DNA of 33,201 nt from Syntrophomonadaceae bacterium (GCA_012840385.1 DULK01000071.1:1-33201), one strand, 5' to 3'. Positions 3,266-27,815 are shown, counted from the first letter of the stretch. Numbers and translations are program-made. Notes: a model not told the origin generated them from the sequence alone.

Positions 3266-3443
3266 TGCCGTCCATCCCCCTTTCCAAAACATCACGGGAT
3301 CTTATCCGCCCCCTCCCCCATAAGACACTGCACCACGGCAATCTTTTTTCGAGGCCGGGGCGGCTTCCGCTTCTTTATTTTACGGGAAAACCCCGTAGAA
3401 AATGACCGCCGGCCATCACCACATACCGGTCGGAAGCAGGCGC

Positions 3444-3479
3444 AATAATTAAACCCTTCCGGAAAGCCACCGGAAGGGT
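3444..3479 (-). terminator. Rho-independent terminator of the MFS transporter gene
   Basis: On the minus strand a perfect 10-bp stem (ACCCTTCCGG with CCGGAAGGGT) with a 7-base loop is followed by TTTAATTATT. It lies 18 bases past the transporter stop codon. Confidence 0.75.
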
Positions 3480-3497
3480 CCCGGCAGGTCAAACCAT

Positions 3498-5146: not shown

Positions 5147-5243
5147 TGGCGGGAGCGTGTGGGAATCGAACCCACCAGAGACACTCGTCATGCCTCTCGC
5201 CGGATTTGAAGTCCGGGCGCACCACCAGGCACAATCCGCTCCC
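5147..5243 (-). tRNA. selC: tRNA-Sec (anticodon TCA)
   Basis: A 97-base tRNA that reads UGA for selenocysteine. On the minus strand the anticodon loop CUUCAAA is closed by CCGGA/UCCGG, the T arm is GUGGG-UUCGAUU-CCCAC and the acceptor is GGGAGCG/CGCUCCC. A long variable arm typical of tRNA-Sec lies between the anticodon and T arms. The discriminator G and CCA are encoded, and a run of six T follows two bases later and may end transcription. tRNA-Sec normally has eight acceptor pairs, but here the eighth position would be G opposite A. SelA and SelB, its partners, lie 10-13 kb away in the same window. Confidence 0.93.
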
Positions 5244-6105: not shown

Positions 6106-7379
6106 CCCTCTTTCCTTTCTTCCAGGATTTCAAAAAAGGCCTGCAGGCGTGTCAGCATCCCTCCGGCCGCCTCGTTCCTTCCGTCCAGGCAGTCGCCGTC
6201 GAGGAGCAAAACCGGCCAGCCCGCTTCCTGCAAGGCTTCCTTCAGGATCAGGGAGCCCCCTGTGGACTGGCGGCAGCCGTGGTGGGAAAAGTGGACGATC
6301 CCGTCCACCCGGTACTTTTCGGCCAGTTCCCGGATCACCCTGATGCGCTCCTCCACCGGTTTGTAGTCGAAGTGGGCCAGCACCTTCCGGGCCAGGCTGA
6401 GGAAGGGCTCGCCCGGGTCCAGGGGCGGCCAGTAAATGTGGTTGAATTCCTCGTAGGCCAGAACCCCTCCCGCCTGCTCGATGAAGCTCATCACCTCATT
6501 GCTGTAGTAGGGCTTCAGGTGCAGCCAGAGCAGGCGGTATTTCTCCGTCCCGCCCCACCGGCCCCCGGCGATCTTTTCCTCGATCTCCTCCGCCAGGCAG
6601 GCGGAGATCTCCGCGGCCTCCCGGCTTCCCTGCCCGGCAAAAAACAGATAAATGAAGGCCAGCATGTCGTTCCCGGAAATGGGTGACGGCACCCGGCAGC
6701 GCAGTTCATTCGCCCGGAGCATGTTCTCCCTAAACTCGTTGCTGTGCCGGAGGGCCTCTTCCAGAGAGGCCCGGTCGGGCCTGCGCCCGGTCGCCTCCGC
6801 CAGGTCTTGCCACAGCCTCTCAAGCTGTTCGGCCACGTAAGCCTCGGCGTCCCGGCCGGCGGTGTAAGGCACATCCAGGATAAAACAGGGAGCGCCGTAG
6901 AGCTCCGCCATATTTTGAAAAAGCAGGGGCGCCCCGTCGCAGAGGTGGGTGCTGGCCAGGAGGGCGGCAGGCCTCGGCAGGTGGCCGGCCCGGGCGGCTC
7001 CTGCGATGCAGCGGTGAAAGGAGCAGAGGTCTCTGCTGTAGCCCGCCTCTTCACCCATGCTCAACGCCTCGGCCCCAAAGCCCATCCCCGTAATAAATCC
7101 GGCTGCCACCTCCGGCGAAAAAGGGCACAGCTGCAGGCCCCAGGCGATTTCCACGGGGAAAAAGGCGCTGGACCAGACCACCGGAACCTTCCCGGTGTAG
7201 GCGCGGCCCGTCTGGTTGAGGGCGAACCGGCTCATCTGGTAGATCGCCTGCCAGGGAAAGCTCTTTCTTGCCAGGACCAGTGCCCCCTCCACGATCCGGT
7301 AAGAGAGGGGGGAAGAAAGCACCTTTCCCCACCGGTCCCTGTCCTTTAAAAGGTTTTGGATTGTCCTGTTGAGATCCAT
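6093..7379 (-). CDS. 2-hydroxyacyl-CoA dehydratase family protein (HgdB/BcrC-like), subunit 2
   Basis: A 428-residue member of the HgdB/benzoyl-CoA reductase subunit family, which binds a [4Fe-4S] cluster through cysteines and dehydrates 2-hydroxyacyl-CoA by a ketyl-radical route. Candidate cluster ligands are in LCSFHRCIAGA and in VHFSHHGCRQS. The C terminus has the family's LLLDGDCLDGRNEAAGG and a tRLQAFFEIL-like helix. It follows the other subunit by 18 bases and overlaps the activator. Which hydroxyacyl-CoA it handles is unknown, and the two subunits diverge enough that reductase-like roles cannot be excluded. Confidence 0.82.
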   Translation of the reverse strand: MDLNRTIQNLLKDRDRWGKVLSSPLSYRIVEGALVLARKSFPWQAIYQMSRFALNQTGRAYTGKVPVVWSSAFFPVEIAWGLQLCPFSPEVAAGFITGMGFGAEALSMGEEAGYSRDLCSFHRCIAGAARAGHLPRPAALLASTHLCDGAPLLFQNMAELYGAPCFILDVPYTAGRDAEAYVAEQLERLWQDLAEATGRRPDRASLEEALRHSNEFRENMLRANELRCRVPSPISGNDMLAFIYLFFAGQGSREAAEISACLAEEIEEKIAGGRWGGTEKYRLLWLHLKPYYSNEVMSFIEQAGGVLAYEEFNHIYWPPLDPGEPFLSLARKVLAHFDYKPVEERIRVIRELAEKYRVDGIVHFSHHGCRQSTGGSLILKEALQEAGWPVLLLDGDCLDGRNEAAGGMLTRLQAFFEILEERKEGCLI

Positions 7380-7397
7380 CTAATCACCAGCCTGTTC

Positions 7398-8504
7398 TCA
7401 GAGCAGTTCCAGGTAGGCCTGGATGCGGGTGCGCGCCTGTTCGAGCCCGGCGTCCCTGTACTCGGTCTCCAGGTAAAGCACCGGTATCCCGGCCTCAGCA
7501 AAATACTCCCGGAATAAGGGGTACTCGTACAGGGAGGCGTCACAGAACTTCAAGGCATGGTAGATGACCCCCCGGGCACCGGCCTTCCTTGCCAGAGACA
7601 GCAGGTATGAAAAACGCTCTTTCCCCGCCAGCATCCTGGGGCAGGGTACCCGCCCCAGGTAGCCCCGGGCCAGGGAAAGGAAGGGGTCAGGCCCCTCCTC
7701 GACCTCCGGAAGACAGTACCGGTACCCCTGGCAGAGGTCGTCCCCGGCGATATTTCCCCCCAACTCCTCGATCAGGTCCAGGTAGGCGAAGGGAAGCGGG
7801 CTTCCCACCACCAGCAGGCGCGGGCCCTGGGGCGAGCCCCCGCGCCGCAGGCCGGCAAGCAGCGCTGCCGCCGGTGAGCCATCCACCCGGCTTTCCCCGT
7901 TTACATCCCCTTTCAGCGCCTTGACAATGCCGTCCAGGACCGGCAGAAACTCATCTTTTTTGGCCCGGCCTGCGGCCCGGACGACCTCCAGGAGCCCCGC
8001 CGCCCGAAAATTTTCCGGTTGGCCCATCCGCAGGCGGTAAAGCTCCCGCAGGAGACGCCGCACGCTTTGGTGTGCCTGCAGCGCCCCGTAAAAAGCACCA
8101 TCGTTCCAGGCAACTCCGTAGAAGCTGCTCAGGCGGCCGGCCAGGGAGCGGAGTGACGAAGCAAAAGCCCGCACCGCAGCATCGCCGTCGCCAGAGGTGC
8201 GGGGCAGATCCAGGAGGTGTACGAAAAATTCCTTTCCCCGGCGCTCACCGGCATACTTGAAGGCGCCGGCCAGGTGCACCAGGGCGTGGCAGGAAGCCGC
8301 CAAAACAATCCCTGTCAGAGAGGGGTTCCCTTTCCCCATCCCCTCGTTCAAGCACGCCCGGCCCAACGGGCAGAAGTTGACGGGGAGATATTCCAGATCC
8401 GCCTTTGCATATTCACCCCGGTCGTCCCCGTAAAGACGGTAGGACTCCAAACCCAGGGTGGCAAAGATCTCTTCCGGTGTGTACGTGCAAACCCAACCGA
8501 GCAT
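7398..8504 (-). CDS. 2-hydroxyacyl-CoA dehydratase family protein (HgdB/BcrC-like), subunit 1
   Basis: A 368-residue paralogue of the next gene, probably the partner subunit of the heterodimer. Seen: an N-terminal VNFCPLGRACLNEG that may supply a cluster cysteine, a central GPRLLVVGSPLP strand-loop, then VIYHALKFCDASLYEYP, and a C-terminal GIPVLYLETEYRD plus RIQAYLELL, all in the order expected for the family. The ATG has GGAG eight bases upstream. It is the first gene of the operon and is preceded by its own promoter with a perfect -35 and -10. Confidence 0.82.
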   Translation of the reverse strand: MLGWVCTYTPEEIFATLGLESYRLYGDDRGEYAKADLEYLPVNFCPLGRACLNEGMGKGNPSLTGIVLAASCHALVHLAGAFKYAGERRGKEFFVHLLDLPRTSGDGDAAVRAFASSLRSLAGRLSSFYGVAWNDGAFYGALQAHQSVRRLLRELYRLRMGQPENFRAAGLLEVVRAAGRAKKDEFLPVLDGIVKALKGDVNGESRVDGSPAAALLAGLRRGGSPQGPRLLVVGSPLPFAYLDLIEELGGNIAGDDLCQGYRYCLPEVEEGPDPFLSLARGYLGRVPCPRMLAGKERFSYLLSLARKAGARGVIYHALKFCDASLYEYPLFREYFAEAGIPVLYLETEYRDAGLEQARTRIQAYLELL

Positions 8505-8540
8505 CTGCGCATCTCCAGAACCAGATTAATATTCCCAGGG

Positions 8541-8563
8541 AAGCCGCCGGGATGCGGCGGTTT
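8541..8563 (-). other. Hairpin at the 5' end of the dehydratase mRNA
   Basis: A 9-bp stem (AAACCGCCG with CGGCGGCTT, one G-U pair) with a 5-base loop starts close to the predicted transcription start. A stem at the very 5' end could stabilise the mRNA. On the plus strand it is followed by TTTCTATTAT, so it could also act as a terminator in the opposite direction. Confidence 0.45.
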
Positions 8564-8565
8564 CT

Positions 8566-8593
8566 ATTATATGCATCCTCCATAATATGTCAA
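8566..8593 (-). promoter_or_regulatory. Consensus sigma-A promoter of the dehydratase operon
   Basis: Minus-strand TTGACA, a 16-base spacer and TATAAT: both hexamers are perfect. The start site would be near 8559, leaving a leader of about 55 bases before subunit 1. Confidence 0.8.
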
Positions 8594-8623
8594 GGCATCC
8601 CGGCCTGGCGTGCAGATTTGGGC

Positions 8624-8648
8624 ACAAAAAGCCGGCAGGCTCCGGCTT
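8624..8648 (-). terminator. Terminator of the liv operon
   Basis: On the minus strand AAGCCGG pairs with CCGGCTT around a 6-base loop and runs into TTTTTG. It lies 23 bases past the stop of the second livF and ahead of the dehydratase promoter, separating the two operons. Confidence 0.75.
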
Positions 8649-8670
8649 GTAGAGCCTGTCTGTAGCAGGC

Positions 8671-9393
8671 CTACCCTCCCAGATAGGCCTTCTTCACCTC
8701 CTCCCGGTCGAGCAGCTCCCGGGCCGGCCCCTCCAGGACGATCCTGCCGGTCTCCAGGACGTAGGCCCTGTGGGCGATCTGGAGGGCCATGCGGGCATTC
8801 TGTTCGACCAGGAGGATGGTGGTTCCCTCGCGGTTGATCTCCTGGATAATGGAAAAGATCTCTTTAACGAGCAGGGGAGCCAGTCCCATCGAGGGCTCGT
8901 CCAGGAGCATGAGGCGCGGGCGGGTCATCAGGGCTCTCCCAATGGCCAGCATCTGCTGCTCGCCGCCGCTCAGGGTTCCGGCAACCTGGTTTCTGCGCTC
9001 CCGCAGGCGGGGGAAGCGGTCCAGGACGCTCTCCAGGTTCCTCCTGACCTCCCTTTGATCGCTCCTGGTGTAGGCTCCCATCTCCAGGTTCTCCAGGACC
9101 GTCAGGTTGGCAAAGACCCTGCGCCCCTCCGGAACCTGGGCGATCCCCTTCCGGACGATCTGATGGGCAGGCAGCTTCATCAGCTCTTCCCCCCGGAAAA
9201 GGATCCTGCCCGAGGCGCTCCGGACTACACCGGAAATTGCCCGCAGGGTGGTGCTTTTTCCCGCGCCGTTCGCCCCGATCAGGCTGACAATTTCCCCCTC
9301 GTCCACCGTCAGGTTGATGCCCTTTAGCGCCCAGATGGCGCCGTAATAAACGTTTACATCCTCAAGGGCAAGGATCGGTTCCTTTCCTGCCAT
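8671..9393 (-). CDS. livF: Branched-chain amino acid ABC transporter ATPase, second LivF copy
   Basis: A 240-residue ABC ATPase of the LivF type. Seen: Walker A GANGAGKST, signature LSGGEQQMLAIGRAL, Walker B LMLLDEPSMGLAP and the switch histidine region ILLVEQNARMA. It is very similar to the LivF encoded at 10279-10989, so it looks like a duplicate. I chose the ATG at 9391-9393 because AAAGGGGAT lies upstream, whereas the longer frame starting at 9489 has no ribosome site and no family match. It follows the CBS-ACT gene by 181 bases and is the last gene before the operon terminator. It could pair with the same LivHM or with another permease. Confidence 0.88.
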   Translation of the reverse strand: MAGKEPILALEDVNVYYGAIWALKGINLTVDEGEIVSLIGANGAGKSTTLRAISGVVRSASGRILFRGEELMKLPAHQIVRKGIAQVPEGRRVFANLTVLENLEMGAYTRSDQREVRRNLESVLDRFPRLRERRNQVAGTLSGGEQQMLAIGRALMTRPRLMLLDEPSMGLAPLLVKEIFSIIQEINREGTTILLVEQNARMALQIAHRAYVLETGRIVLEGPARELLDREEVKKAYLGG

Positions 9394-9574
9394 GGATATC
9401 CCCTTTGCTCCTGAGTAGCCGCAGTCAAACCGCTGGCTCGGCGTGAAAAAGCCCGGCCACTCAATTAACGATTCCGTCCAATACGGCAAGTATTAAAGAC
9501 CGGAGCAAGCATACCGGTTATAGGTCAGGCTTACTTCTCATAAGTGCCGGGCGCAGCTTTCTTTATTTATACTG

Positions 9575-10231
9575 CTATACCGCAATATGCCCCTTCCAGG
9601 CTACAGATTTGACGGTAATGCCCAGGGCCTTTAAGGCCTCGGTGATGGCGGTGGCGTCGGTCGTCCTCAGCTGCATGATCAGGATCGCCCCGCCGTGGTC
9701 GCTGTGAAACACGGCCAGATGAGAGATGTCCCCGCCGTTTTTCCAGACGGCCTCCGTCACCTTGGCCAGCATCCCCGGTTTATCGGCCATCTCAAGAGTC
9801 AGCCTGGTGCCGGGATCGCGCAGTCCCATCAGCTCGATGAAGGCGTCAAAGATGTTGCTCTCGGTGATGATTCCCACCAGTTTGCCGTCTTCCACCACCG
9901 GAATCGCACCGATCTCGTTGTCCCGCATGATCAGGGCGGCCTCCTCCAGAAAGGCATCCGGACTGATGGTGATCACCTTCTGTTTCTTGATGATCTTTTC
10001 GATCTTCATGCGGGAGAGAAGGTAGTTCAGTTCAAATATGCTCAGCGAGGTTGCCGGCGATGGAGAGACCTCCATCAGGTCCCGGTCGGTGACGATACCG
10101 ACCAGCCTGCCCCTGTCAAGCACAGGAAGACGCCTGATGTTGTGTTCCCGCATCAGGCTCAAGGCATCCGCAATCGTGGTCTGCGGGGTGATGGTGATGG
10201 GGTCCGGTGTCATCTTGTCACGCACCAGCAT
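9575..10231 (-). CDS. CBS-pair and ACT domain protein (AcuB-like)
   Basis: A 218-residue small-molecule sensor-like protein. Two CBS motifs occupy about residues 1-60 (LVRDKMTPDPITI ... VGIVTDRDLMEV) and 75-130 (KVITISPDAFLEEA ... LVGIITESNIFDAF). An ACT-like domain from about 138 begins RLTLEMADKPGMLAKVTEAV. CBS pairs bind adenine nucleotides and ACT domains often bind amino acids. Its place inside a branched-chain amino acid transport operon, between two LivF genes, suggests that it senses energy state and an amino acid, possibly to tune transport. The effect on the transporter is inference. A start-proximal AAAGGGGCG precedes the ATG. Confidence 0.85.
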   Translation of the reverse strand: MLVRDKMTPDPITITPQTTIADALSLMREHNIRRLPVLDRGRLVGIVTDRDLMEVSPSPATSLSIFELNYLLSRMKIEKIIKKQKVITISPDAFLEEAALIMRDNEIGAIPVVEDGKLVGIITESNIFDAFIELMGLRDPGTRLTLEMADKPGMLAKVTEAVWKNGGDISHLAVFHSDHGGAILIMQLRTTDATAITEALKALGITVKSVAWKGHIAV

Positions 10232-10278
10232 GTTAAACGCCCCTTTCTTAAAATTTTATTTGAAAAGGACTTGAGAGC

Positions 10279-10989
10279 TTAAGCACTCTCTCCCAGGTAA
10301 GCGGCCCTGACCCCTTCGTTGGCCTGCAGTTCCCTCGAATCACCCGACAGGACTATGCGGCCGCTTTCCAGGACGTAGGCCCTGTTAGCAATCTGCAGGG
10401 CCATGTAGGCATTCTGCTCGACGAGGAGGACCGTGGTTCCCTGCTGGTTGATGGTGGAGATAATGTTGAAGATCTCCTCGACCAGGATCGGGGAGAGCCC
10501 CATGGACGGCTCGTCGAGCAAGAGCAGGACCGGCTTTGCCATCAATGCCCGACCGATGGCCAGCATCTGCTGTTCACCCCCGGAGAGGGTGCCGGCCAGC
10601 TGCCTGGACCTTTCCTTCAAGCGCGGAAAGCGCTGGAAAACCTCCTCGAGGGAGGCCTGGATTTCCGCCCGGTCGGTTCTTGTGTAGGCTCCCATCTTCA
10701 GGTTTTCCAGCACCGTCAGGTTGCCGATGATTCTTCTCCCCTCGGGAACGTGGGAGATGCCCATGGACACAATCTTATGGGGTTTCATGCCGGTGATCGG
10801 TTTTCCCCGGAACAGGATCTCCCCGCCGGTGGGCCTGTTCAGGGCGGAGATGGTCCGCAGGGTGGTGGTTTTTCCCGCACCGTTCGCCCCGATCAGGGTG
10901 ACGATTTCGCCTTCCTGCACATCAAAGGAGATGCCGTGCAGGGCGCGGATGTTTCCAAAAAAGACGCTCAGATCTCTGACTTCCAGCAT
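10279..10989 (-). CDS. livF: Branched-chain amino acid ABC transporter ATPase LivF
   Basis: A 236-residue cytoplasmic ATPase that pairs with LivG to power uptake. Walker A is GANGAGKTT, the signature is LSGGEQQMLAIGRAL and Walker B is LLLLDEPSMGLSP. Its ATG shares one base with the livG stop (TGATG), so the two ATPases are translationally coupled. The full-length protein begins MLEVRDLSVFFGNIRALHG, a standard LivF start. Confidence 0.94.
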   Translation of the reverse strand: MLEVRDLSVFFGNIRALHGISFDVQEGEIVTLIGANGAGKTTTLRTISALNRPTGGEILFRGKPITGMKPHKIVSMGISHVPEGRRIIGNLTVLENLKMGAYTRTDRAEIQASLEEVFQRFPRLKERSRQLAGTLSGGEQQMLAIGRALMAKPVLLLLDEPSMGLSPILVEEIFNIISTINQQGTTVLLVEQNAYMALQIANRAYVLESGRIVLSGDSRELQANEGVRAAYLGESA

Positions 10990-11759
10990 CAGGCGACAGC
11001 CCCCTTACCCAGGTAGGCCTCGAGAACCTTCGGGTTCTGGCGCACCTCGTGCGGCAGGCCCCGGGCGATGATCTCCCCGAAGTCCATCACCACCAGGCGC
11101 TCGCAGAGGTTCATCACAAGCCCCATCTGGTGCTCAATCAGGAGCACGGTCAGGTTGAATTTCTGCTTGATGAAGCGGATCAGTTCCACCAGTTGCTGCA
11201 CCTCCGCCGGGTTCATGCCCGCAGCGGGTTCGTCCAGCAGGAGCAGTTCCGGCCCCACGGCCAGGGCGCGGGCAATTTCCACGCGCCGCTGGTCGCCGTA
11301 CGGCAGGTTTTTCACCGCCGTGTTCGCCTTGTCGGCGATGTTCAGGGTTTCCAGGAGTTCAAAGGCCCGCTCGTTGATCTCCGCCTCCTTTGCCCTAAAG
11401 CGCGGGGTGCGCAGGAAGGCGTCGATCAGCCCGTAACCCGCCCGGGGGTGAAAGGCCACCCGTACGTTGTCCAGGACCGAATTATCCCGGAAAAGCCTGA
11501 TGTTTTGAAAGGTCCGGGCGATCCCCAGCCGGGCGATCTGGTAAGGCTTGAGCCCCACGATCGACCGCCCCTTAAAGACGATCGTCCCGTCGGTGGGCGG
11601 GAAATATCCGGAAATCATGTTGAAGACCGTCGTCTTGCCGGCTCCGTTGGGGCCGATCAGCCCGACAACCTCACCGGGCTCGATGGTAAGGTCAAACCTG
11701 TTTACGGCTCGCAAGCCTCCGAAATTGATGCCGAGTCCTTTAACCTCTAAGAGCGGCAT
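10989..11759 (-). CDS. livG: Branched-chain amino acid ABC transporter ATPase LivG
   Basis: A 256-residue ATPase, longer than LivF in the usual LivG way. Walker A is GPNGAGKTT, and the LivG-specific IARTFQNIRLF follows. The signature region is degenerate (LPYGDQRRVEIARAL), as is normal for LivG, and Walker B is LLLLDEPAAGMNP. The start overlaps the end of livM by 20 bases. A GGAGGGAG site precedes the ATG. Confidence 0.94.
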   Translation of the reverse strand: MPLLEVKGLGINFGGLRAVNRFDLTIEPGEVVGLIGPNGAGKTTVFNMISGYFPPTDGTIVFKGRSIVGLKPYQIARLGIARTFQNIRLFRDNSVLDNVRVAFHPRAGYGLIDAFLRTPRFRAKEAEINERAFELLETLNIADKANTAVKNLPYGDQRRVEIARALAVGPELLLLDEPAAGMNPAEVQQLVELIRFIKQKFNLTVLLIEHQMGLVMNLCERLVVMDFGEIIARGLPHEVRQNPKVLEAYLGKGAVA

Positions 11760-12735
11760 CGGGCTTCTCCCTCCGTACCTGCGGCACCAGGAAACCGAAC
11801 TCCTTACCGCCGAAGATGCCCTGGCGACGCACGAGAATTGTGATAATCAGGATCAGGGCGTAGATCACGCCGCGAAAATCGACAAACTGCGGGCCGAGCA
11901 CGAACCGCAGCCCCTCCAGGAGAAACGCCCAGCCGATGGCGGTAACTACGGTCCCCGTCATGCTGCCCAGGCCGCCCAGCACCACCACGATCAGGTAGTC
12001 GAAGGACTGCAGGAAGTAAAAGTCTCCCGGGCAGATGAACGGGTAGGTGTGGGCGTAAAGCCCGCCGCCGAGACCGGCAAGGGCGCAGCCGAAGGTGAAG
12101 GCCATCAGCTTCGTCTTGAAGGTGTTGACACCGATCATGTCGGCAGCCGTCTCATCCTCCCTGATGGAGGTACACGCCCTGCCGTAGGTGGAAAAAATGA
12201 AATTGCGGGTGAGAACGATCACTATCAGTGCAGTGAAGAAAAGCCATTCCAGGTTGGCCACCTGGGGGGTGCCCACCATTCCCCTGGCGCCGCCCAATTC
12301 GGGGATGATTTTATCAGCATTATCCAGGGCCACCTTGACGATGAAACCAAATCCGAGGGTGGCAATACCGAGGTAGTCGGACTTTAACCTGAGCACCGGC
12401 ACCCCGATCAGAAAGCCCATCAGGCCGGCAAAAACCATCCCCACGAGCAGGGCACCGATAAAGGAAAGCCCGCCATACTGCCCGAAGGTCTTACTGAAGT
12501 AGCCGGCGCTGTAAGCCCCCAGCCCCACGAAGGCGGCATGCCCCAGGGAAAACTGGCCGGTAAAACCGTAGATGATGCCCAAACCCAACGCCCCGATGGT
12601 GACGATCAGGGAGTAAAACAAAACGCGCTGCCAGTAAGGATTGATGACTCCGGTGGTGATCATTATTTTAAGGAGTACGTAGAGCACAACGGCTCCGATA
12701 ACCATCAAGAGCATCTTGTTTGTCTTCTGAAACAT
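11740..12735 (-). CDS. livM: Branched-chain amino acid ABC transporter permease LivM
   Basis: A 331-residue inner-membrane permease with about nine or ten hydrophobic helices. The family segments YGFTGQFSLGHAAFVGLGAY near the N terminus and GGLGSMTGTVVTAIGWAFL near the C terminus are present. It starts 15 bases after livH with a GGAAGGGGG site before the ATG, and its end overlaps livG. Confidence 0.93.
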   Translation of the reverse strand: MFQKTNKMLLMVIGAVVLYVLLKIMITTGVINPYWQRVLFYSLIVTIGALGLGIIYGFTGQFSLGHAAFVGLGAYSAGYFSKTFGQYGGLSFIGALLVGMVFAGLMGFLIGVPVLRLKSDYLGIATLGFGFIVKVALDNADKIIPELGGARGMVGTPQVANLEWLFFTALIVIVLTRNFIFSTYGRACTSIREDETAADMIGVNTFKTKLMAFTFGCALAGLGGGLYAHTYPFICPGDFYFLQSFDYLIVVVLGGLGSMTGTVVTAIGWAFLLEGLRFVLGPQFVDFRGVIYALILIITILVRRQGIFGGKEFGFLVPQVRREKPDAALRG

Positions 12736-12750
12736 ACCCCCACCCCCTTC

Positions 12751-13635
12751 CTAGATCTTCTCCTGCTGGCTGCGTCCCAGGATGCCCGACGGCCTGATCA
12801 AAAGCACCAGGATCAGGATGGCAAAGGCAATGGCGTCACGCAGCTGCGAGGAGATATAGGCTGCCGTCATGGTTTCGACCTGCCCCATGATCAGAGAACC
12901 CAGGACGGCCCCCGGGATCTGGCCGATCCCCCCCAAGACCGCGGCGGTGAAGGCCTTGAGGCCGGGCATGATCCCCATGAAGGGGTAGATCTGCGGATAG
13001 GCGATGGCGTAGAGGACACCGCCCACCGCCGCCAGAGCCGAGCCTATGGCAAAGGTGAAGGAAATGGTTTTGTCCACATCGACACCCATCAGCCGCGCCG
13101 CATCGTGGTCAAAGGAAACCGTGCGCATGGCGGCGCCGATCTTCGTCTTGAAAACAAGAAAAAGCAGGAACAGCAGGAATATAATGACCACAGCCATGAT
13201 TACGACCTGTATGTTGGTTATCGAAACTCCGCCCAGATTCCAGGTGATGCTTCTAAAGGGACGCTGGACCACCCGGTAATCGGGGCCAAAAATAAATTTC
13301 AGGCTGCTGCCGTATTCCAGAAAGAACGATACTCCGATGGCGCTGATCAGTGCCGCAATCTTGGGAGCGTAGCGGAGCGGGCGGTAGGCAATCCGCTCAA
13401 TGATAACCCCCAGGGCGGCGCAGACCGCCATAGAGACGATGATGGCCACAGGCCACGGGAGCCCCCAGGAGGAGTAGCCCAGGTACCCCACAAACGCTCC
13501 GATCATAAATACATCTCCATGGGCAAAGTTGATCAGCCCGATCGTGCCGTAAACCATGGTATAGCCGAGGGCGATCAGGGCGTACATAAGGCCGAGCTGG
13601 AGACCGTTGATAACCTGCTGAATAAAGGATTCCAA
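12751..13635 (-). CDS. livH: Branched-chain amino acid ABC transporter permease LivH
   Basis: A membrane permease of about 294 residues that forms the channel with LivM. It shows the LivH pattern IQQVINGLQLGLMYALIALG, then YGTIGLINFAHGDVFMIGAF, and GGIGQIPGAVLGSLIMG near the end. I chose the TTG at 13633-13635 because GGAGGGG lies six bases upstream. A GTG five codons earlier overlaps that ribosome site and so is unlikely. An 88-base gap containing a strong hairpin separates it from livK. Confidence 0.92.
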   Translation of the reverse strand: MESFIQQVINGLQLGLMYALIALGYTMVYGTIGLINFAHGDVFMIGAFVGYLGYSSWGLPWPVAIIVSMAVCAALGVIIERIAYRPLRYAPKIAALISAIGVSFFLEYGSSLKFIFGPDYRVVQRPFRSITWNLGGVSITNIQVVIMAVVIIFLLFLLFLVFKTKIGAAMRTVSFDHDAARLMGVDVDKTISFTFAIGSALAAVGGVLYAIAYPQIYPFMGIMPGLKAFTAAVLGGIGQIPGAVLGSLIMGQVETMTAAYISSQLRDAIAFAILILVLLIRPSGILGRSQQEKI

Positions 13636-13676
13636 TCTCTTCCCCTCCACTGCAAAGACGACAACTCGAAACAGGA

Positions 13677-15291: not shown

Positions 15292-17196
15292 TTATCGGGC
15301 ACTAAACAGCACCCTTTTGTCCCCTGTCCGGCGGGTTTTTTTCGCCCGGTCAAAATACTCAAGCAGCGGCAGGCAGTAGCGCCGCGATGTGCCCAGGAGG
15401 TCGCGGGCCTCGGCCACGGTAATTTCACCGTGCTCCCTCAGGTATTCCTCTATAATACCCCACGCTTTTGAGACAGCATCCTGCAAAAAATAGAGATCCT
15501 CGCCCAGCTTCATCAAGATCCCCGACTGGACGCAGTACTGCAGGAGATCCGTGTCCCCCCCGAGCAGTGCCAGCAGTTCCTCGGCGGAAGGGGGTGCATA
15601 GGGCCGGGAGGCCATTTCCGCCTTGAGCCTGCCGACCTTCTCCTCCTGACCGGTGGAGAGCTTTACCGCAAATCCCGGCAGAGCGAGGGTTTGCCCGGTT
15701 AAAACCAGGCTGCCCGATTCCGCCCACTTTTCCAGGAGCGCCTGGTAAAGGCGCGGCGGAAGCTGGCCGAAGGCACGGGAACGGAGTTCCTCCTTCGGGT
15801 AGCCGGGGCGCAGGGGATATTGCGCGTGGTAGGAGCGCAGGGCGGAATCCGCCTGGGACCACCAGCTATCCATGAGCGGAGCGGAAACCACAAAAGCCTC
15901 GTTCCCGAAGTCGAACAAGAAGGCCTCTCCCGACGAGTGCATCTCCTCCAGGACCTGTTTAACCTCCGTTTCGCTTACGCCCGCCTTTGACGCCAGTTCC
16001 TGGGGCGTAGCCGGTTTTCTGAGGGACCGCAGTTCTTCGGCGATCCGGGCGTAGGGGCTCCCCGTCATCTTCCGCCGCAGTCCGGAAAGGACCTCCTCCC
16101 GGAAGCGCCGGTAGCGGATGCCTCCTGTCTCCACCACTTCACCCCCCCCGATGGTGGTTACGGGGGAGTAGTACCTGATCACAAACCGGTCGTGCACAGC
16201 CGCCACCACCGGATCTTCCAGCTCAAACTGGACTAGGGCGTCATCACCCGGGATCAGTTCCTCCCGGTCGAGCAGGCGCACCCGGGCGACGGTTTCCCTC
16301 GTCCCCAGGTGGAAGTGCACCGGCTGCCAGTTTTTCAAGGGCCGCGGGGCGTTCTCCAGGAGGTGCAGGGATGCGGTCAGCCTCCTGACGGCTTGAAACG
16401 CCCCCGGAGTGACCAGGACGTCTCCCCGGTTCACCTCGCCGACCTCCAGGCCGGTCAGGTTTACTGCCACCCTCTGGCCGGCCACCGCCTCTTCCACCTT
16501 ATTGCCGTGCACCTGGAGCGACCGCACGCGCCCCTGCAGGCCGGTCGGGAGCAGCTGCAAGATGTCCCCCACCCGGATCCTCCCGCTGACCAGGGTTCCC
16601 GTCATCACCGTTCCGAAGCCGGTGATGGTGAACACCCGGTCGACGGGGAGGCGGGCATCCCCGGACCGGGGTTTCGGCCTGACCTCCCGCACCATCCTTT
16701 CTATCTGCGAGCGCAGTTCCCCAAGCCCCTCCCCGGTCACCACGGAAACGGGAACGACGGGCGCGTTCTCAAGGAATGTCCCTTTCAGCAGTTCCTGGAC
16801 GTCCTCTTTGACGAGGAGCAGCCAGTCCTCCTCCACCAGATCGATCTTGGTGAGCACCACGATCCCCTTCTGGACCCGGAGCAATTCCAGGATGTCCAGG
16901 TGCTCGCGGGTCTGCGGCATGACACCCTCGTCCGCGGCCACCACGAAGAGGACCATGTCGATGCCCCCGGCCCCGGCCAGCATGTTTTTAACAAAGCGCT
17001 CATGGCCGGGGACGTCGACGATACCCGCCGTAATACCGCCGGAAAGGCGCAGGGGGGCAAATCCCAGTTCGATGGAAATCCCCCGTTCCTTCTCCTCCTT
17101 AAGGCGGTCGGTGTCCACACCGGTCAGTGCCTTGACCAGTTGGGTCTTGCCGTGATCCACGTGCCCGGCCGTGCCGATGATTACGAATGTTTCCAA
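15292..17196 (-). CDS. selB: Selenocysteine-specific translation elongation factor SelB
   Basis: A 634-residue GTPase that carries Sec-tRNA to UGA codons by binding the mRNA SECIS hairpin. The G1 loop is [13 protein letters not shown] near the N terminus, followed by [11 protein letters not shown] (G2), [12 protein letters not shown] (G3) and LTKIDL (G4). EF-Tu-like beta barrels follow, and the C-terminal third has the winged-helix repeats that bind SECIS. I chose the TTG at 17194-17196, giving a protein beginning [18 protein letters not shown], because AGAGGG lies upstream; a longer frame starts at 17226. It lies 81 bases after selA in the same direction, and no clear terminator follows before the liv promoter. 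Confidence 0.95.
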
Positions 17197-17277
17197 ACCG
17201 TTACCCTCTTCCGCGCGAATTCTCAAGAATCAGCTGCCCAGTACCGCAAGAGCCTTAGAGTGTAACAATGCAAGCCG

Positions 17278-18684
17278 TTATCCCGTCTGTTCGGAAATCA
17301 AGCATCGTAAAGCCGCTGCCACCGCATCCACCAGGGCTTCTTCATCCCCTTCCCCGATGGTGCGCGGGTCGAGCAGAACCCCATCCTCCTGCACCCGAAC
17401 CAGCACAGGCGGATCACCCTTGCGCAGGCGCCCGGCCAGGGCTGCGGCGGTTGCCTTTTTTGGCCTCAGAACCACCAGAGACGTGGGCAGCTCGGTCAGG
17501 GGAAGGGCCCCCCCTCCCACCCGGGAGAAGCCGTCGATTACGGTCACAGAACAGGCATCCCCGGCGCGGCAAGCTATACCGTCACGGAGATGCTCCGCCC
17601 TGGACTGCAGTTCCTCCCGTCGGATGGCCAGCATCCGCAGAACAGGGAGTGTCTCCGCGGCATCCTTTCTCTGGTACGCCCGAAGGGTGGCCTCCAGGGC
17701 GGCAAGGGTGAGCTTATCCACCCGCAGCGCCCGCAGGAGGGGATGCTCCTTCAGAACCTGGAGCAGCCCGGAGCGCCCCAGAATAACGCCTGCCTGGGGG
17801 CCGCCCAGTAGCTTATCCCCGCTGAAGGTGACGAGATCCATTCCCGCATCAATGCTCGCCTGGACGGTCGGCTCGACCCCCACCCCGTACTGCTGCAGGT
17901 CCACCAGGACCCCGCTCCCCAGGTCCTCCATGACGGGCAGCTGGTATTTGCGCCCCAAGGAGACCAACTCCTCCCGGGTCACCTCCCGGGTGAACCCCAG
18001 GATCCTGTAATTGCTCGGATGCACCTTAAGCAGCAGGGCGGTTTCCGGCCCGATCGCACGCTCGTAGTCCCGGGGATAGATCTTGTTGGTGGTTCCGACC
18101 TCTTTCAGGATTGCTCCGCTCTGGGCCATGACCTCGGGTATCCGGAAGGAGCCCCCGATCTCCACCAGTTCGCCGCGGGAGACGACGACCTCCTTTCCCC
18201 GGGCGAGGGCGCTCAGGCAGAGGAGCACCGCAGCGGCATTGTTGTTGACCACAAGGGCGGCCTCGGCCCCGGTCAGGTCTTTCAACAGATCCTCCACGTG
18301 GCTGTAGCGCGAACCCCGGCCGCCTGTTTCCAGGTCCAGCTCCAGGTTGGAGTAGCCCCGGGCCACGGCGGTTGCCGCCGCAAGGGCGTCATCGCTCAAA
18401 GGCGCCCGGCCGAGGTTGGTGTGCAGGACAACCCCTGTTGCGTTGATCACCGGGCGCAGGCTCATGCGCAGTTTATCCAGCACTATCCGCCTCACCGCAT
18501 CAGCAAGATCGGCAATGCCCGGCGGCTCGGCCCCTTCTTCCAGGATGGCCCGCCGCCAGGCGGCCAACACTTCCCGCGCCGCATCAGTCAGCAGGTGCTG
18601 CGGGTAATTCCCGTGCTCCCCGGCGCTCTCCCGGACCAGTTCGTGAACCGGCGGCAGCTGGCGCACCAGTTGTTGTCTATCCAC
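17278..18684 (-). CDS. selA: L-seryl-tRNA(Sec) selenium transferase SelA
   Basis: A 468-residue PLP enzyme that converts Ser-tRNA(Sec) to Sec-tRNA(Sec) with selenophosphate; bacterial forms are decamers. Seen: RQLPPVHELV at the N terminus, VINATGVVLHTNLGRAPL, the NNNAAAVLL loop, and the PLP lysine in DLVTFSGDKLLGGPQAGVI. The start is the GTG at 18682-18684, with AAAGGAGAAAG immediately upstream. A TTG ten codons earlier sits too close to its purine run. Followed by selB. Confidence 0.95.
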   Translation of the reverse strand: MDRQQLVRQLPPVHELVRESAGEHGNYPQHLLTDAAREVLAAWRRAILEEGAEPPGIADLADAVRRIVLDKLRMSLRPVINATGVVLHTNLGRAPLSDDALAAATAVARGYSNLELDLETGGRGSRYSHVEDLLKDLTGAEAALVVNNNAAAVLLCLSALARGKEVVVSRGELVEIGGSFRIPEVMAQSGAILKEVGTTNKIYPRDYERAIGPETALLLKVHPSNYRILGFTREVTREELVSLGRKYQLPVMEDLGSGVLVDLQQYGVGVEPTVQASIDAGMDLVTFSGDKLLGGPQAGVILGRSGLLQVLKEHPLLRALRVDKLTLAALEATLRAYQRKDAAETLPVLRMLAIRREELQSRAEHLRDGIACRAGDACSVTVIDGFSRVGGGALPLTELPTSLVVLRPKKATAAALAGRLRKGDPPVLVRVQEDGVLLDPRTIGEGDEEALVDAVAAALRCLISEQTG

Positions 18685-18823
18685 GGGCTTTCTCCTTTCG
18701 CAAGTCTCAATCAATCCCTCCGGGCAATTTCAGATAAATTATTCCACAATTCACGCAAAAAATCCTTTCGGGCAACCCTTCTCCCCTTAACAACCATAAC
18801 ACATAAAACCGTCAGGCCGATGT

Positions 18824-23814: not shown

Positions 23815-24660
23815 TCATTTTTTCTGAAAGATCAGGATGAACTCGTGGACCTTGTTTACCCGGAAAACATAAGGGTATCCCAGCGGCCGCAGGTTGTTGT
23901 ACTCCTGCCTCCTGTCCCAGACGATCAGGTCGTCCAACTCAAAACCGATCCCCTGCATCACAGGCACCAGGTCCATGTGCAGGGGGTAAAAGGTGCTCCC
24001 CTTCCTTACGTCCATAACCACTACGATGCAGTACGCCCCCGGCTTCAGGCAAACCCAGACCTGTTTAAAGACGCTTCCCAACGCCCCTAAAAAATCCCTG
24101 TAGTCGGTGATGTTCCCGATGTCCTGCACCATGTCACCGTAACTGCGCTTCGGCTTTCCGTCTGCCGAGCGGCGTTGCTGCAAGATGTTCCAGTAAGGAG
24201 GGGAGGTGATGCAGAGCCCCACGCTTTCAGGGGCCAGGTAATCCGCCAGAAAACGGCAGTCCACCTGGTACAGCTGCGGGTAGCATTCCGGCGGCCCCTC
24301 GATCCGGGACAGCCTCCGGCGGGCTATCTCGAGGAACTCCGGAACCAGCTCAAAGCCCGCCGAGGGTATCCCCATCCGGTAGGCGGAGCAAACCGTGCTC
24401 CCGCTCCCCAGGAAGGGGTCGAGGATAAGGCCGCTCCGGCCGCGGTAAAAGATCCGGATCAGGCGGTCGGTCAGGGCGAGGGGAAACATGGCCGGGTGCC
24501 CAAACCGCCGCTCCTCCGGAGTTTTCACCAGGTCGTCCCAAATGCTGATGGAATAACGCAGCCAGGTCCTGCCGTCCAGGCAGTCGATGTCTTCCCGAGC
24601 ACTGATTACATCCCTGTCCCGAAGATCCTTATAGTCTTTATTGTTCCCCTTATTCGACAT
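23815..24660 (-). CDS. DNA methyltransferase, N4-cytosine or N6-adenine type (restriction-modification)
   Basis: A 281-residue SAM-dependent DNA methyltransferase. The SAM-binding motif I is ILDPFLGSGST at residues 79-89, followed by GFELVPEFLEIA (motif II), and the catalytic motif IV is TSPPYW at 152-157, which favours N4-cytosine. Motif I precedes motif IV, unlike the usual beta-class order. A family-typical GHPAMFPLALTDRLI precedes motif I. Start is the ATG at 24660 with AGGAGAG upstream. It is divergent from the regulator and nuclease genes. Its base composition is GC-rich like the chromosome, unlike the AT-rich rest of the island. The recognition sequence is unknown. Confidence 0.82.
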   Translation of the reverse strand: MSNKGNNKDYKDLRDRDVISAREDIDCLDGRTWLRYSISIWDDLVKTPEERRFGHPAMFPLALTDRLIRIFYRGRSGLILDPFLGSGSTVCSAYRMGIPSAGFELVPEFLEIARRRLSRIEGPPECYPQLYQVDCRFLADYLAPESVGLCITSPPYWNILQQRRSADGKPKRSYGDMVQDIGNITDYRDFLGALGSVFKQVWVCLKPGAYCIVVVMDVRKGSTFYPLHMDLVPVMQGIGFELDDLIVWDRRQEYNNLRPLGYPYVFRVNKVHEFILIFQKK

Positions 24661-24861
24661 AGAAACTCTCCTAGCCTGCCAAAAGAAGTGCAAGGATTAA
24701 CATATTACCTCCATTTATATTAAAAATAAAGCACCCTCCCCGAAAGTTTTTGACGTATGCATGTTATGCAATTTAAGATGGAACACTAAAGTCTGTAGAT
24801 ATATAGTATTCGCTGCTTTACCATCTTTTTAAAAGTGACATATTCCGAAAGGAAGACGATC
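24661..24861. promoter_or_regulatory. Divergent control region of the restriction-modification island
   Basis: On the plus strand TTGACG (24750-24755), an 18-base spacer and TAAGAT (24774-24779) form a promoter. Inside the spacer is the inverted repeat TGCAT-GTT-ATGCA (24758-24770). Just downstream, 24784-24808 reads ACTAAAGTC and then ATATAGT in the spacing of controller-protein C-boxes. These are good operator candidates for the XRE regulator. Binding is inferred, not shown. Confidence 0.45.
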
Positions 24862-25125
24862 ATGAAGATTTCAAAAGTTTTTGGACAAATTCTTAAAGAA
24901 TTCCGCACAGAACGAGGCTTCTCTCAAGAACGATTGGGATTTGAAAGCGGGTATCATCGCACTTACATTAGTCTTCTTGAGCGAGGCCAAAAAAGCCCTT
25001 CTCTTAACACAATTTTCAAACTTGCAGAATCACTCAACATAACTCCTTCGGAAATGATTTTACGTGTTGAAGAGGAATTGGGAACGTCCAAAAACAAAAG
25101 AAAAAGAAAGGAGTCCAAAAAATGA
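24862..25125 (+). CDS. XRE-family controller-like regulator
   Basis: An 87-residue helix-turn-helix protein of the size of restriction-modification C proteins. The HTH covers about residues 18-54 (FSQERLGFESGYHRTYISLLERG), and a lysine-rich tail ends the protein. The ATG has GAAAGGAAG upstream; an in-frame ATG at 24835 has no such site. Its stop overlaps the nuclease start (ATGA), so both would be made from one mRNA. A controller would keep the nuclease low until methylation is complete. It is AT-rich compared with the host genes. Confidence 0.8.
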   Translation: MKISKVFGQILKEFRTERGFSQERLGFESGYHRTYISLLERGQKSPSLNTIFKLAESLNITPSEMILRVEEELGTSKNKRKRKESKK

Positions 25126-25730
25126 AAATAATCCGCTTTGAGAGGTTAATTGATAAGGGTGAATTCTCAAAGTCCGGTACTTGGAATATAATAGAAAACC
25201 AAATTGTACAGGCGATAAAGGCAATTGCATGGCCTCCAGGGTCAGGCTCATTTATATTATACGATCAACCTGGAAAGGCCAGGGGAAAAGGTAATGGCGT
25301 AAAACCCATTAAAGAAGCATGTATGTTTCATTTAAAGTCTCTAGGCTGGAGCCTGGAAACTCCTGTGCACATAGCTACTTTAAAAAAACCAGGTCCTTTA
25401 GATGCAACATTTCCTGTTGGAGAGCGCCTTTTCTGCGTGGAATGGGAAACAGGTAACATTTCATCCAGTCATCGTGCGCTTAATAAAATTGCGCTGGGTA
25501 TTCTAAAAAACGTCTTAATTGGCGGAATTCTGATCCTGCCCACAAGGAAAATGTACAAGTATCTAACTGATCGCGTTGGTAATTTCGAAGAACTTGAACC
25601 ATATTTCCCTTTTTGGCGATCCCTGTGTGTTGATGAAGGTTTGCTGGGAGTTATTGCAATTGAGCATGATGCAGTAAGCAAAAACGTTCCTCGCATCCCA
25701 AAGGGAACCGATGGAAGAGCTTTACAATAA
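25122..25730 (+). CDS. Putative type II restriction endonuclease, BamHI/BglII-like
   Basis: A 202-residue protein coupled to an XRE regulator and flanked by two methyltransferases, the setting of a type II endonuclease. The likely PD-(D/E)xK centre is D94 (GPLDATF) and E107-W-E109 (VEWETGN), where a Glu replaces the usual Lys as in BamHI; E79 could be a further acidic ligand. After it comes a helix and a GGILILPTRKMYKYL strand like the BglII/BstYI group. This assignment is by pattern and context. It could be another PD-(D/E)xK nuclease. AT-rich, and it stops five bases from the convergent methyltransferase stop. Confidence 0.65.
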   Translation: MKIIRFERLIDKGEFSKSGTWNIIENQIVQAIKAIAWPPGSGSFILYDQPGKARGKGNGVKPIKEACMFHLKSLGWSLETPVHIATLKKPGPLDATFPVGERLFCVEWETGNISSSHRALNKIALGILKNVLIGGILILPTRKMYKYLTDRVGNFEELEPYFPFWRSLCVDEGLLGVIAIEHDAVSKNVPRIPKGTDGRALQ

Positions 25731-25735
25731 TTATG

Positions 25736-27103
25736 TTATTTGCGCTGTAAAATTATTATAAATTCGCTTCTCATGGTATTAGCCATACCCGTGATTTGGC
25801 GATTCATTTTACGCACAAGATGAAGCCCATGCTTCTTACCCAATTCAATTAATATATCATCAATACCCTGAACGTTTTCGGGTTTAACCCCAAGAATTTT
25901 CCCAAGCTGATTATTATTTGTCCCGACCACGATCGTACAAAAACGTTCTCGTTTTAAGACACGAGCACATTCGGAAAGCACCTTATCCATATCCAATTTA
26001 TAAAGCTCGAATTTCTCGCGCAGTGTTTTTCCGCGTAAACCAATCATCTTTTGTCTTAATTGATCTACCGGAACACCCAAGTAGTTCAAATGAAATGAAT
26101 CATTTTCCAAATAGTCGATAGCAAAACTATAAGGCGGCGAGAATATAACCCCATCTATACTCGAGTTTTCTAGCGGCAAGCTCCTTGCGTCACCCTCAAG
26201 CGGCGTTGCTTCAGCAAGCTCATTTTCAGTACCACTTAGAATACGTTGAATTTTTTCAGCTACAAATAGATAACGCTCCAGGATAGCTTTAAATTGTTCA
26301 TAATGTGATTTTCGGTTGCTTCTTTCTGAATAACCAGCGCTATCGAGGTATGCCAACAATAAAAAGTTATGTACTTTCTCATTTTCACAACCATTAGGTA
26401 AATTAGCTATATACCTGTCATTTGATTCCATAGTTAAGAAGGATTTTTGGAGATAATTCTCGGTGCGCATTTTAATCCCTTGCTCCGGTTCTCCTGCCAA
26501 TCTCTTAAAATATTCAAAAACAGACTGGCAGTTATTCAATGCACACCGAACTGGTGCAAGAGGAATTGTTAAACCGTCTAATTTGGCTTGTACCATAAAA
26601 CGACAAAACGGACTGGCATCGATACCAATCGATTTAATGCCCATAAGTCTTGCTTCTATTAACACAGTCCCTGAACCCATCATTGGGTCTAGAACCGTAT
26701 CACCAGGCTTTAAACCCATGACATTCATGAGGCCTTTAATCATCTGCGGATGAAATTTACCACGATAAGGAAATAAACCATGTGTTGCATACCCAGTTTT
26801 GAATTGATTGGTTTCGAAAAATGCCTTTAAACGCGACGAAGAATGCTGAGGAAGTTTGACCGGCTCACCTCTGCACATAAGAAAATGACGGGTTAACTGA
26901 TCGCCGACTCGTGCAAAATATGCTCCGTTATTAATAATTTCCTCATCACTCAATATCTGGCTTTCATAAAAAGCCAGCTCAAGTTCATAAACTTCGTTAA
27001 GTTGAGGAATAAGTTCCAAATGTTCGGGAAAAAGGCATTGGTATATATTTCGAGAGAAAATGTCTTCCTTTTTTGCAATCGATACCCGGTTTGCCGTTTT
27101 CAT
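25736..27103 (-). CDS. DNA methyltransferase with motif I and SPPY motif (second methyltransferase of the island)
   Basis: A 455-residue SAM-dependent DNA methyltransferase. The N-terminal 100 residues are unrecognised, followed by GLFPYRGKFHPQMIKG and motif I TVLDPMMGSGTVLIEA (136-151). Motif IV is FSPPYSFAIDY (321-331). A long insertion of about 175 residues between them could be the target recognition domain. The SPPY form suggests N4-cytosine or N6-adenine. AT-rich with A/T-ending codons, unlike the flanks. The ATG has GAGGGGAG upstream. Having two methyltransferases may mean asymmetric sites or each strand modified separately. Confidence 0.8.
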   Translation of the reverse strand: MKTANRVSIAKKEDIFSRNIYQCLFPEHLELIPQLNEVYELELAFYESQILSDEEIINNGAYFARVGDQLTRHFLMCRGEPVKLPQHSSSRLKAFFETNQFKTGYATHGLFPYRGKFHPQMIKGLMNVMGLKPGDTVLDPMMGSGTVLIEARLMGIKSIGIDASPFCRFMVQAKLDGLTIPLAPVRCALNNCQSVFEYFKRLAGEPEQGIKMRTENYLQKSFLTMESNDRYIANLPNGCENEKVHNFLLLAYLDSAGYSERSNRKSHYEQFKAILERYLFVAEKIQRILSGTENELAEATPLEGDARSLPLENSSIDGVIFSPPYSFAIDYLENDSFHLNYLGVPVDQLRQKMIGLRGKTLREKFELYKLDMDKVLSECARVLKRERFCTIVVGTNNNQLGKILGVKPENVQGIDDILIELGKKHGLHLVRKMNRQITGMANTMRSEFIIILQRK

Positions 27104-27199
27104 ATCAACGTTCTCCCCTCAGTCGTTATACCATAACATCATATAGAAAAATTCAATTTAACAACTGGAAATTCCTGCATTAATGTAACCTTCCACAGT

Positions 27200-27589
27200 C
27201 TAAACCTCATGGACCTTCCACTGTTCGTCCACCCAGAGCCCGGTGATCTCACAGGGAAACCCCCATGATTTCACCGTTTCAACAGCGGCGGCGATCTGCC
27301 TTAACTGTATCTCTTTGTCTGCAGGGTTTCCGGCACAGTCGTGGTGCCCGACAATCACCACATGCTTCGAACCGTGCTTCATTACCGAGATCTCCAGCCT
27401 GCGCCTGATTGAGTCGAGGGCGGCCCGGTCCCTGTTCTCGGCCAGGATCCTGTTCGGCCCCGGCTCCGTGATGGCGTCAACATAGTCAACCCCGTATTTG
27501 CTTCTCAAATACTCGATGACAGGCAGTTGTGCCCTTCCGTCCATACAGTTGATTGCGGTTGCAAAGGTTCCCTGACTGATGGTGATCAT
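27200..27589 (-). CDS. Small beta-carbonic-anhydrase-like protein
   Basis: A 129-residue protein, much shorter than typical beta-carbonic anhydrases (about 200). It keeps the metal motifs: CMDGR near the N terminus (Cys, Asp and Arg of CxDxR) and VVIVGHHDCAGN (His and Cys ligands). It is therefore a minimal zinc-binding form. Whether it hydrates CO2 is unknown. It lies alone on the minus strand between the island and larC. The ATG has only a poorly spaced GGGGG, so the start is uncertain. Confidence 0.75.
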   Translation of the reverse strand: MITISQGTFATAINCMDGRAQLPVIEYLRSKYGVDYVDAITEPGPNRILAENRDRAALDSIRRRLEISVMKHGSKHVVIVGHHDCAGNPADKEIQLRQIAAAVETVKSWGFPCEITGLWVDEQWKVHEV

Positions 27590-27815
27590 CCCCCGGCTTG
27601 TTTTTTGTGCACAACCCTATTTTGTGTTATTTTCCGGATCCGCATCAAGACCCTCTTTTCGTTTTTATTGTAAATCCTTCTGAAATCGAGAAGATCGGCA
27701 CGGGACAAAAACGGGACGGAATCTTGACAGAAAATCCCTGCTACAATTAAACTTTGTGTGGTAATAACGGCCTGATCCTGCAGTTTCACATACCCGGTGA
27801 AAGGAGCGGAGGAGA

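What the first reader, a model, noticed from the sequence alone, without database searches (positions are those of the whole stretch)
23815..27103. Restriction-modification island with two methyltransferases between DUF4446/M23 and parAB
The nuclease, controller and second methyltransferase are clearly AT-rich while the first methyltransferase matches host composition, so the island may be a mosaic of old and new parts. Two methyltransferases with a single BamHI/BglII-like nuclease is an uncommon arrangement, and insertion next to parAB is notable.
Basis: partly seen in the sequence, partly recalled or inferred. Interest (0 to 1): 0.65.

Follow-up and report, generated by a model that had tools for sequence, protein, structure and literature searches.

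The report
BamHI-type restriction cassette beside resident methyltransferase
A small acquired anti-phage gene set (a BamHI-like DNA-cutting enzyme, its regulator and one protective methyltransferase) has landed next to an old, unrelated host methyltransferase, so the apparent two-methyltransferase island is really one newcomer and one long-term resident.

Summary
The genes exist as described, but they are two things. (1) M1 (23815-24660, -; GC3 0.78) is a resident, apparently solitary N4C-type methyltransferase. It is present in 19 of 20 genomes of the same family, mostly in the same ParAB/LarC/DUF4446/M23 block, without any nuclease. (2) C-R-M2 (24785 to about 27190; GC3 0.32-0.34) is an acquired Type II restriction-modification cassette. 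R belongs to the BamHI/OkrAI family with catalytic and major base-contact residues conserved, so the predicted target is GGATCC. It is missing here, in the related genome G015, and in one archaeon. In the sister systems L003/L005, Mb sits exactly where M1 sits here. G015 carries the same cassette (77-81% third-position identity against 39-49% for neighbouring genes) plus a fragment of a gene native to the window's genus, so it was transferred between genera. Whether M1 functionally replaces Mb is open. Known kind of system, modestly unusual variant.

The parts
23815..24660 (-). M1: resident, apparently solitary SPPYW-type (N4C-like) DNA methyltransferase, 281 aa; not part of the acquired cassette
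   Evidence: Pfam N6_N4_Mtase 2.6e-23; orthologue in 19/20 family genomes; conserved synteny without cassette; host-like GC3 0.784
24785..24811 (+). C-box operator (C.PvuII type): left half ACTAAAGTC, spacer TGTA, right half GATATATAGT
   Evidence: conserved ACTATAGTCTGTAGATTTATAGTCT upstream of C in sister cassettes; one match in the window with 3 mismatches, 0 expected
24793..24794 (.). left junction of cassette and host DNA, inside the operator
   Evidence: homology to cassette-free relative G006 ends after ACTAAAGTC
24862..25125 (+). C: controller (HTH_3), 87 aa from ATG 24862
   Evidence: Pfam HTH_3 1.2e-15; PADLOC Control_protein 9.6e-17; PDB C.BclI 1.8e-13, C.AhdI 4.2e-13
25122..25730 (+). 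R: BamHI/OkrAI-family Type IIP endonuclease, 202 aa, predicted G^GATCC
   Evidence: Pfam BamHI 1.5e-64; OkrAI 1.7e-66, BamHI 4.7e-27 with E77, D94, E111, E113, N116, S118, R122, D154, R155 equivalents conserved
25736..27103 (-). M2: SPPY-type DNA methyltransferase (motif I before IV), 455 aa, tail-to-tail with R; the only cassette methyltransferase
   Evidence: Pfam N6_N4_Mtase 2e-13; tail-to-tail with R in L002-L015 and L042; family alignment, motifs intact
27104..27199 (.). right end of the cassette; position where most sister cassettes carry Mb upstream of M2; no Mb relic seen
   Evidence: empty-site relative G002 resumes homology at 27200; translation of the stretch shows no Mb
27200..27589 (-). 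carbonic anhydrase-like gene (Pro_CA_2), host flank; its 3' fragment travelled to G015 with the cassette
   Evidence: Pfam Pro_CA_2 5.6e-52; found in G000, G002, broken in G001; absent from the other family genomes searched; fragment in G015

Best explanation
The stretch holds a resident orphan methyltransferase (M1) and, inserted just upstream of it, an acquired Type IIP restriction-modification cassette C-R-M2. R most likely cuts unmethylated GGATCC as a BamHI/OkrAI-type dimer. C binds the C-box before its own gene and switches on C and R together after a delay. M2 methylates the same site (probably N4-cytosine) and protects the host. The cassette descends from BamHI-type systems with two methyltransferases (M2 plus a beta-class Mb) and has lost Mb. 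It entered the window's genus next to M1, and a congener's copy, with a piece of the neighbouring carbonic anhydrase gene, was later transferred to another genus (G015). Shown here: homology, gene order, residency of M1, absence of Mb, HGT signal, operator. Inferred: target sequence, methylation chemistry, timing by C, direction of transfer.
For: R homology with conserved residues. C and operator (C-box form GACT-tat-AGTC with GT spacer in PMC4824078). C-R-M2 order in Bacillota, deltaproteobacteria, Lentisphaerota and others with no M1 nearby. M1 in 19/20 family genomes and in the same block without cassette. R found in only 2 of 61 genomes. Composition. Mb present next to R in every BamHI-type locus resolved except the window, L002 (=G015) and L042; no Mb orthologue in G000 or G015. 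R tree: window+L002 sister to L003+L005 inside the M2+Mb clade, 85/81. Third-position identity G000-G015: C/R/M2 0.77-0.81, flanking genes 0.39-0.49; G000-G002 flanks 0.78-0.91. Carbonic anhydrase fragment in G015.
Against: No methylation or cleavage data. GGATCC is not clearly depleted in carriers (224-260 per Mb against 225-320 in non-carriers), so long-term activity is not visible. M2 has no close solved DNA-methyltransferase relative; its predicted fold is nearest to archaeal Trm11 with low TM-score. G015 is 76% complete, so an unassembled Mb there cannot be ruled out. The tree supports are moderate.
Confidence: 0.85

Rival explanations
1. M1, although resident, has been functionally recruited: it takes over the job of the lost Mb (for example methylating GGATCC or single-stranded/hemimethylated GGATCC), and its promoter region is now shared with the C operator.
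For: In the sister systems L003 and L005 Mb lies divergent from C, exactly where M1 lies here. The left junction is inside the operator, so M1's upstream region and the C promoter are fused. Landing next to a methyltransferase by chance is unlikely for one random event.
Against: M1 is not a homologue of Mb beyond the methyltransferase core (BLASTP only motif I and IV pieces). M1 is kept in 17 family genomes in which R was not found, so its conserved job is unrelated to R. M2 alone appears sufficient in L042. Only one original insertion event.
Confidence: 0.15
2. One reading: M1, C, R and M2 form one acquired two-methyltransferase system.
For: Adjacency; Type II systems with two methyltransferases exist (DpnII, BcnI; PMC3573125); relatives of this cassette do have two.
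Against: M1 is at the same place without C, R, M2 in relatives, has host composition, and is 70% identical between G000 and G015 while M2 is 92% identical.
Confidence: 0.03
3. The cassette was present in the common ancestor of the two genera and lost elsewhere, rather than transferred between them.
For: Same position in G000 and G015. G006 keeps GCATACTAAAGTC, matching a left half-operator, at the end of homology, which could be a scar. G001 carries a deletion through the site (24709|27376).
Against: Cassette third-position identity 0.77-0.81 against saturated flanks 0.39-0.49. The carbonic anhydrase gene is found in no other genus of the family searched. G006 native sequence resumes where the foreign segment ends in G015.
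Confidence: 0.08
4. M2 is not the protecting methyltransferase of R; the host survives because R is inactive or unexpressed.
For: M2 fits curated families only weakly; no clear site depletion.
Against: All catalytic residues of R and motifs of M2 are intact, reading frames open, operator kept; M2 is the sole methyltransferase found with R in L042.
Confidence: 0.07

Closest known systems
OkrAI endonuclease (BamHI isoschizomer, GGATCC; PDB 3odh)
   Same: R is homologous over its full length (E 1.7e-66) with active-site and base-contact residues conserved
   Different: the methyltransferase content of the OkrAI locus was not examined here
BamHI-type systems on plasmids of Geobacillus and Desulfocapsa (<Mb C> R>)
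   Same: same nuclease family, C protein directly upstream of R
   Different: Mb lost here; M2, which those systems lack, lies tail-to-tail with R
L003/L005-type systems (<Mb C> R> <M2) and L004/L006-L015-type systems (C> R> <M2 <Mb)
   Same: C, R and M2 homologous and in the same order; same operator
   Different: they keep Mb; here Mb is absent and a resident methyltransferase sits in its L003/L005 position
DpnII and BcnI systems (two methyltransferases, one active on single-stranded DNA)
   Same: model for why relatives of this cassette have two methyltransferases for one palindromic site
   Different: other targets and enzymes; single-strand activity not tested for any protein here
Conserved orphan methyltransferases with patchy restriction systems (Halobacteria, PMC6471742)
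   Same: pattern of a conserved solitary methyltransferase beside patchily distributed R-M genes
   Different: different lineage; target of M1 unknown

Membership tests
BamHI/OkrAI Type IIP endonuclease (R) | family-profile match over the whole domain | tested here: met
   Pfam BamHI 1.5e-64, residues 2-163 to profile 1-157; OkrAI 1-201
BamHI/OkrAI Type IIP endonuclease (R) | catalytic E77, D94, E111, E113 | tested here: met
   E79, D94, E107, E109 in R, from the alignment to 1bam; residue roles from general knowledge
BamHI/OkrAI Type IIP endonuclease (R) | cleaves G^GATCC | not testable with these tools
   base-contact residues N116, S118, R122, D154, R155 conserved; no assay
C.PvuII-type controller | small HTH protein encoded just upstream of and overlapping R | tested here: met
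C.PvuII-type controller | paired C-box GACT-N3-AGTC with GT spacer upstream of C | tested here: met
   consensus across sister cassettes; window copy with 3 mismatches, left half one mismatch
N4-cytosine DNA methyltransferase (M2, M1) | glycine-rich motif I and SPPY motif IV | tested here: met
   M2 DPMMGSGT and SPPY invariant in 14 sequences; M1 DPFLGSGST and SPPYW
N4-cytosine DNA methyltransferase (M2, M1) | methylates cytosine N4 in GGATCC | not testable with these tools
   no methylome or enzyme assay available
Two-methyltransferase GGATCC system (C-R-M2-Mb) | C, R, M2 in fixed order | tested here: met
Two-methyltransferase GGATCC system (C-R-M2-Mb) | beta-class Mb next to M2 or divergent from C | tested here: not met
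   absent at the locus and in the genome
Orphan (solitary) methyltransferase (M1) | conserved by descent without a cognate nuclease | tested here: met
   19/20 family genomes, same synteny, no BamHI-type R in 59 of 61 genomes; no obvious nuclease next to it in other families (one unassigned neighbour in G132)

The most novel reading that the evidence does not exclude
A restriction cassette that lost its own BamHI-type methyltransferase settled beside, and now relies partly on, a pre-existing orphan methyltransferase of the host, with the C operator built half from cassette and half from host DNA so that the resident gene comes under cassette control: an in-flight case of an R-M system recruiting a resident enzyme.
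Probability: 0.13. Interest if true: 0.65.

Novelty: new variant of a known kind. Interest (0 to 1): 0.36.

Why it matters
It separates a vertically kept orphan methyltransferase from a horizontally moving R-M cassette at one locus, with gained, empty and deleted states in close relatives. It also shows that many GGATCC systems come with two methyltransferases of different classes, and that one lineage has dropped the usual one. That makes the role of the second methyltransferase directly testable: backup, or single-strand protection as for DpnA. For M1, a family-wide solitary methyltransferase near parAB is a candidate epigenetic regulator with no assigned motif.

Tried and rejected
M1 as part of the acquired unit: rejected by empty sites and composition. 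Mb elsewhere in the genome: only motif-level hits. Restriction-site avoidance as evidence of activity: GGATCC density is about the same in carriers and non-carriers. Mobile-element ends: no inverted repeats and no bordering direct repeats around the cassette; the only tRNA in the window is tRNA-Sec at 5147, far away. Plasmid homologues of R exist but the two opened have Mb, not M2. Viral contigs hold one M2-like protein (38%) and one R relative, no M1 orthologue; their neighbourhoods were not followed up. Fold search of M2 gave only general Rossmann methyltransferases, best Trm11.

Full report
OBSERVATION. The four reading frames are real and intact. M1 23815-24660 (-), C 24862-25125 (+), R 25122-25730 (+), M2 25736-27103 (-). 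GC3 is 0.78 for M1 and 0.32-0.34 for C, R and M2; neighbouring genes are 0.63-0.72.

WHAT R, C AND M2 ARE. R matches Pfam BamHI at 1.5e-64 and OkrAI at 1.7e-66 over its whole length; the alignment to BamHI keeps E77, D94, E111, E113 and the base-contact residues N116, S118, R122, D154, R155 (the roles of these residues are from general knowledge of BamHI). The predicted target is therefore GGATCC. C resembles C.BclI and C.AhdI. Upstream of C in the sister cassettes lies a conserved ACTATAGTCTGTAGATTTATAGTCT, the C.PvuII-type C-box (two GACT-tat-AGTC operators around a GT spacer, PMC4824078). The window copy is at 24785 with three mismatches, none expected by chance. M2 has motif I before an SPPY motif IV, suggesting N4-cytosine methylation; it belongs to a family of 14 aligned relatives with invariant motifs.

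M1 IS A RESIDENT. Among 20 genomes of the same family, 19 carry an M1 orthologue (62-100% identity), while R occurs in only two of 61 genomes and close M2 in the same two. In G001, G002, G003, G006, G016 and G018 M1 lies between LarC and DUF4446 (M23 and bactofilin beyond, where the fetched stretch reaches them), with ParAB beyond LarC wherever the stretch reaches it; in G012 and G013 it lies directly beside ParB. None of these has the cassette. Outside the family it appears at 49-66% identity in 9 further genomes of 149 sampled in the phylum, with no recognisable nuclease next to it in those opened (one unassigned neighbour in G132). Nothing supports M1 being acquired with R.

THE CASSETTE NORMALLY HAS TWO METHYLTRANSFERASES, BUT NOT M1. 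A genome-wide scan for R gave 51 loci. Annotating them with M1, C, R, M2 and a beta-class methyltransferase Mb (DPPF...FGGSG) gives three architectures. R with Mb only: cyanobacteria, Clostridium, Paenibacillus and plasmids of Geobacillus and Desulfocapsa. R with M2 and Mb: all 13 loci L003-L015, either C> R> <M2 <Mb or, in L003 and L005, <Mb C> R> <M2. R with M2 and no Mb: the window, L002 (the same locus as G015) and the archaeal L042. L032 and L052 are cut or partial and could not be typed. Mb fits one PADLOC methyltransferase model at 1.5e-156. No Mb orthologue exists in G000 or G015 (G015 is only 76% complete). The R tree places window+L002 beside L003+L005 within the M2+Mb clade (85/81), so Mb was most likely lost. 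In L003/L005 Mb occupies the position that M1 occupies here.

MOVEMENT. Between G000 and G015, C, R and M2 share 0.77-0.81 of third codon positions, while M1, DUF4446, M23, bactofilin, DAGK, LarC and ParB share 0.39-0.49; the same flanking genes share 0.78-0.91 within the genus (G000-G002). The shared segment runs from the operator into the carbonic anhydrase-like gene, whose 3' fragment persists in G015; that gene is otherwise found, among the family genomes searched, only in the window's genus. Hence a congener of the window organism, or DNA from one, was the likely donor. In the cassette-free G006 the homology to M1's upstream region ends with GCATACTAAAGTC, matching a left half-operator. 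Two readings fit: host and cassette were joined at this short match, so the left operator half is host-derived (it departs from the consensus in the same base), or G006 keeps a scar. The first is favoured because G006 native sequence resumes where the foreign segment ends in G015. G001 carries a deletion across the site (24709|27376), and G002 an empty site. No repeats or tRNA mark the ends.

MECHANISM. Most likely: M2 is expressed first, C accumulates and activates its own promoter with R, and R cuts unmethylated GGATCC on incoming DNA. This follows the established C-controlled Type II scheme; only the anatomy is shown here. GGATCC is not clearly depleted in carriers, compatible with recent acquisition. 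Why relatives have two methyltransferases is unknown; DpnII offers a model, where DpnM protects double-stranded and DpnA single-stranded DNA, and BcnI likewise has a single-strand methylase (PMC3573125).

NOVELTY. BamHI-type systems, C proteins and orphan methyltransferases beside patchy R-M genes (PMC6471742) are known. The unusual points are the M2-only state, the junction inside the operator, and M1 standing in the place of Mb. Whether M1 was recruited is open and testable; I give the full recruitment reading about 13%.

Noticed in passing
L078 (G002) 7986-13671; L077 (G001) 7458-9615; window 27590-27815: A biotin-synthesis gene run (bioF, a transporter-like gene, bioW, bioD, bioA, bioB by eye) lies between the carbonic anhydrase gene and larC in G002, is reduced to a bioF-bioA fusion plus bioB in G001, and is absent at this place in the window.
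   Followed up: no
L079 (G006) M1, corresponding to window 24385-24535: A short tract of M1 in G006 is 88-92% identical to the window's M1 although most of the rest is 56-83%, and is less like its own genus there (67-77%): possible local recombination between genera in the 5' part of M1.
   Followed up: partly
L113 (G132) 2892-3746: A 284-aa protein with no Pfam match lies directly downstream of an M1 homologue on the same strand; it looks LAGLIDADG-like by eye and might be a partner nuclease in that genome.
   Followed up: partly
L078 (G002) 7280-7385: M1 of G002 has an unrelated N-terminus and upstream region (identity to the window starts at residue 25), suggesting a rearrangement at M1's 5' end.
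   Followed up: no
L013 1-1193 and 3045-5038: An M2 fragment with Mb lies on the other side of a C-R-M2 unit whose M2 is cut by the contig end, suggesting a duplication or an assembly-edge effect.
   Followed up: no
window 5147-5243, 15292-17226, 17278-18714: tRNA-Sec and, by eye, selB and selA: selenocysteine machinery in the same window.
   Followed up: no
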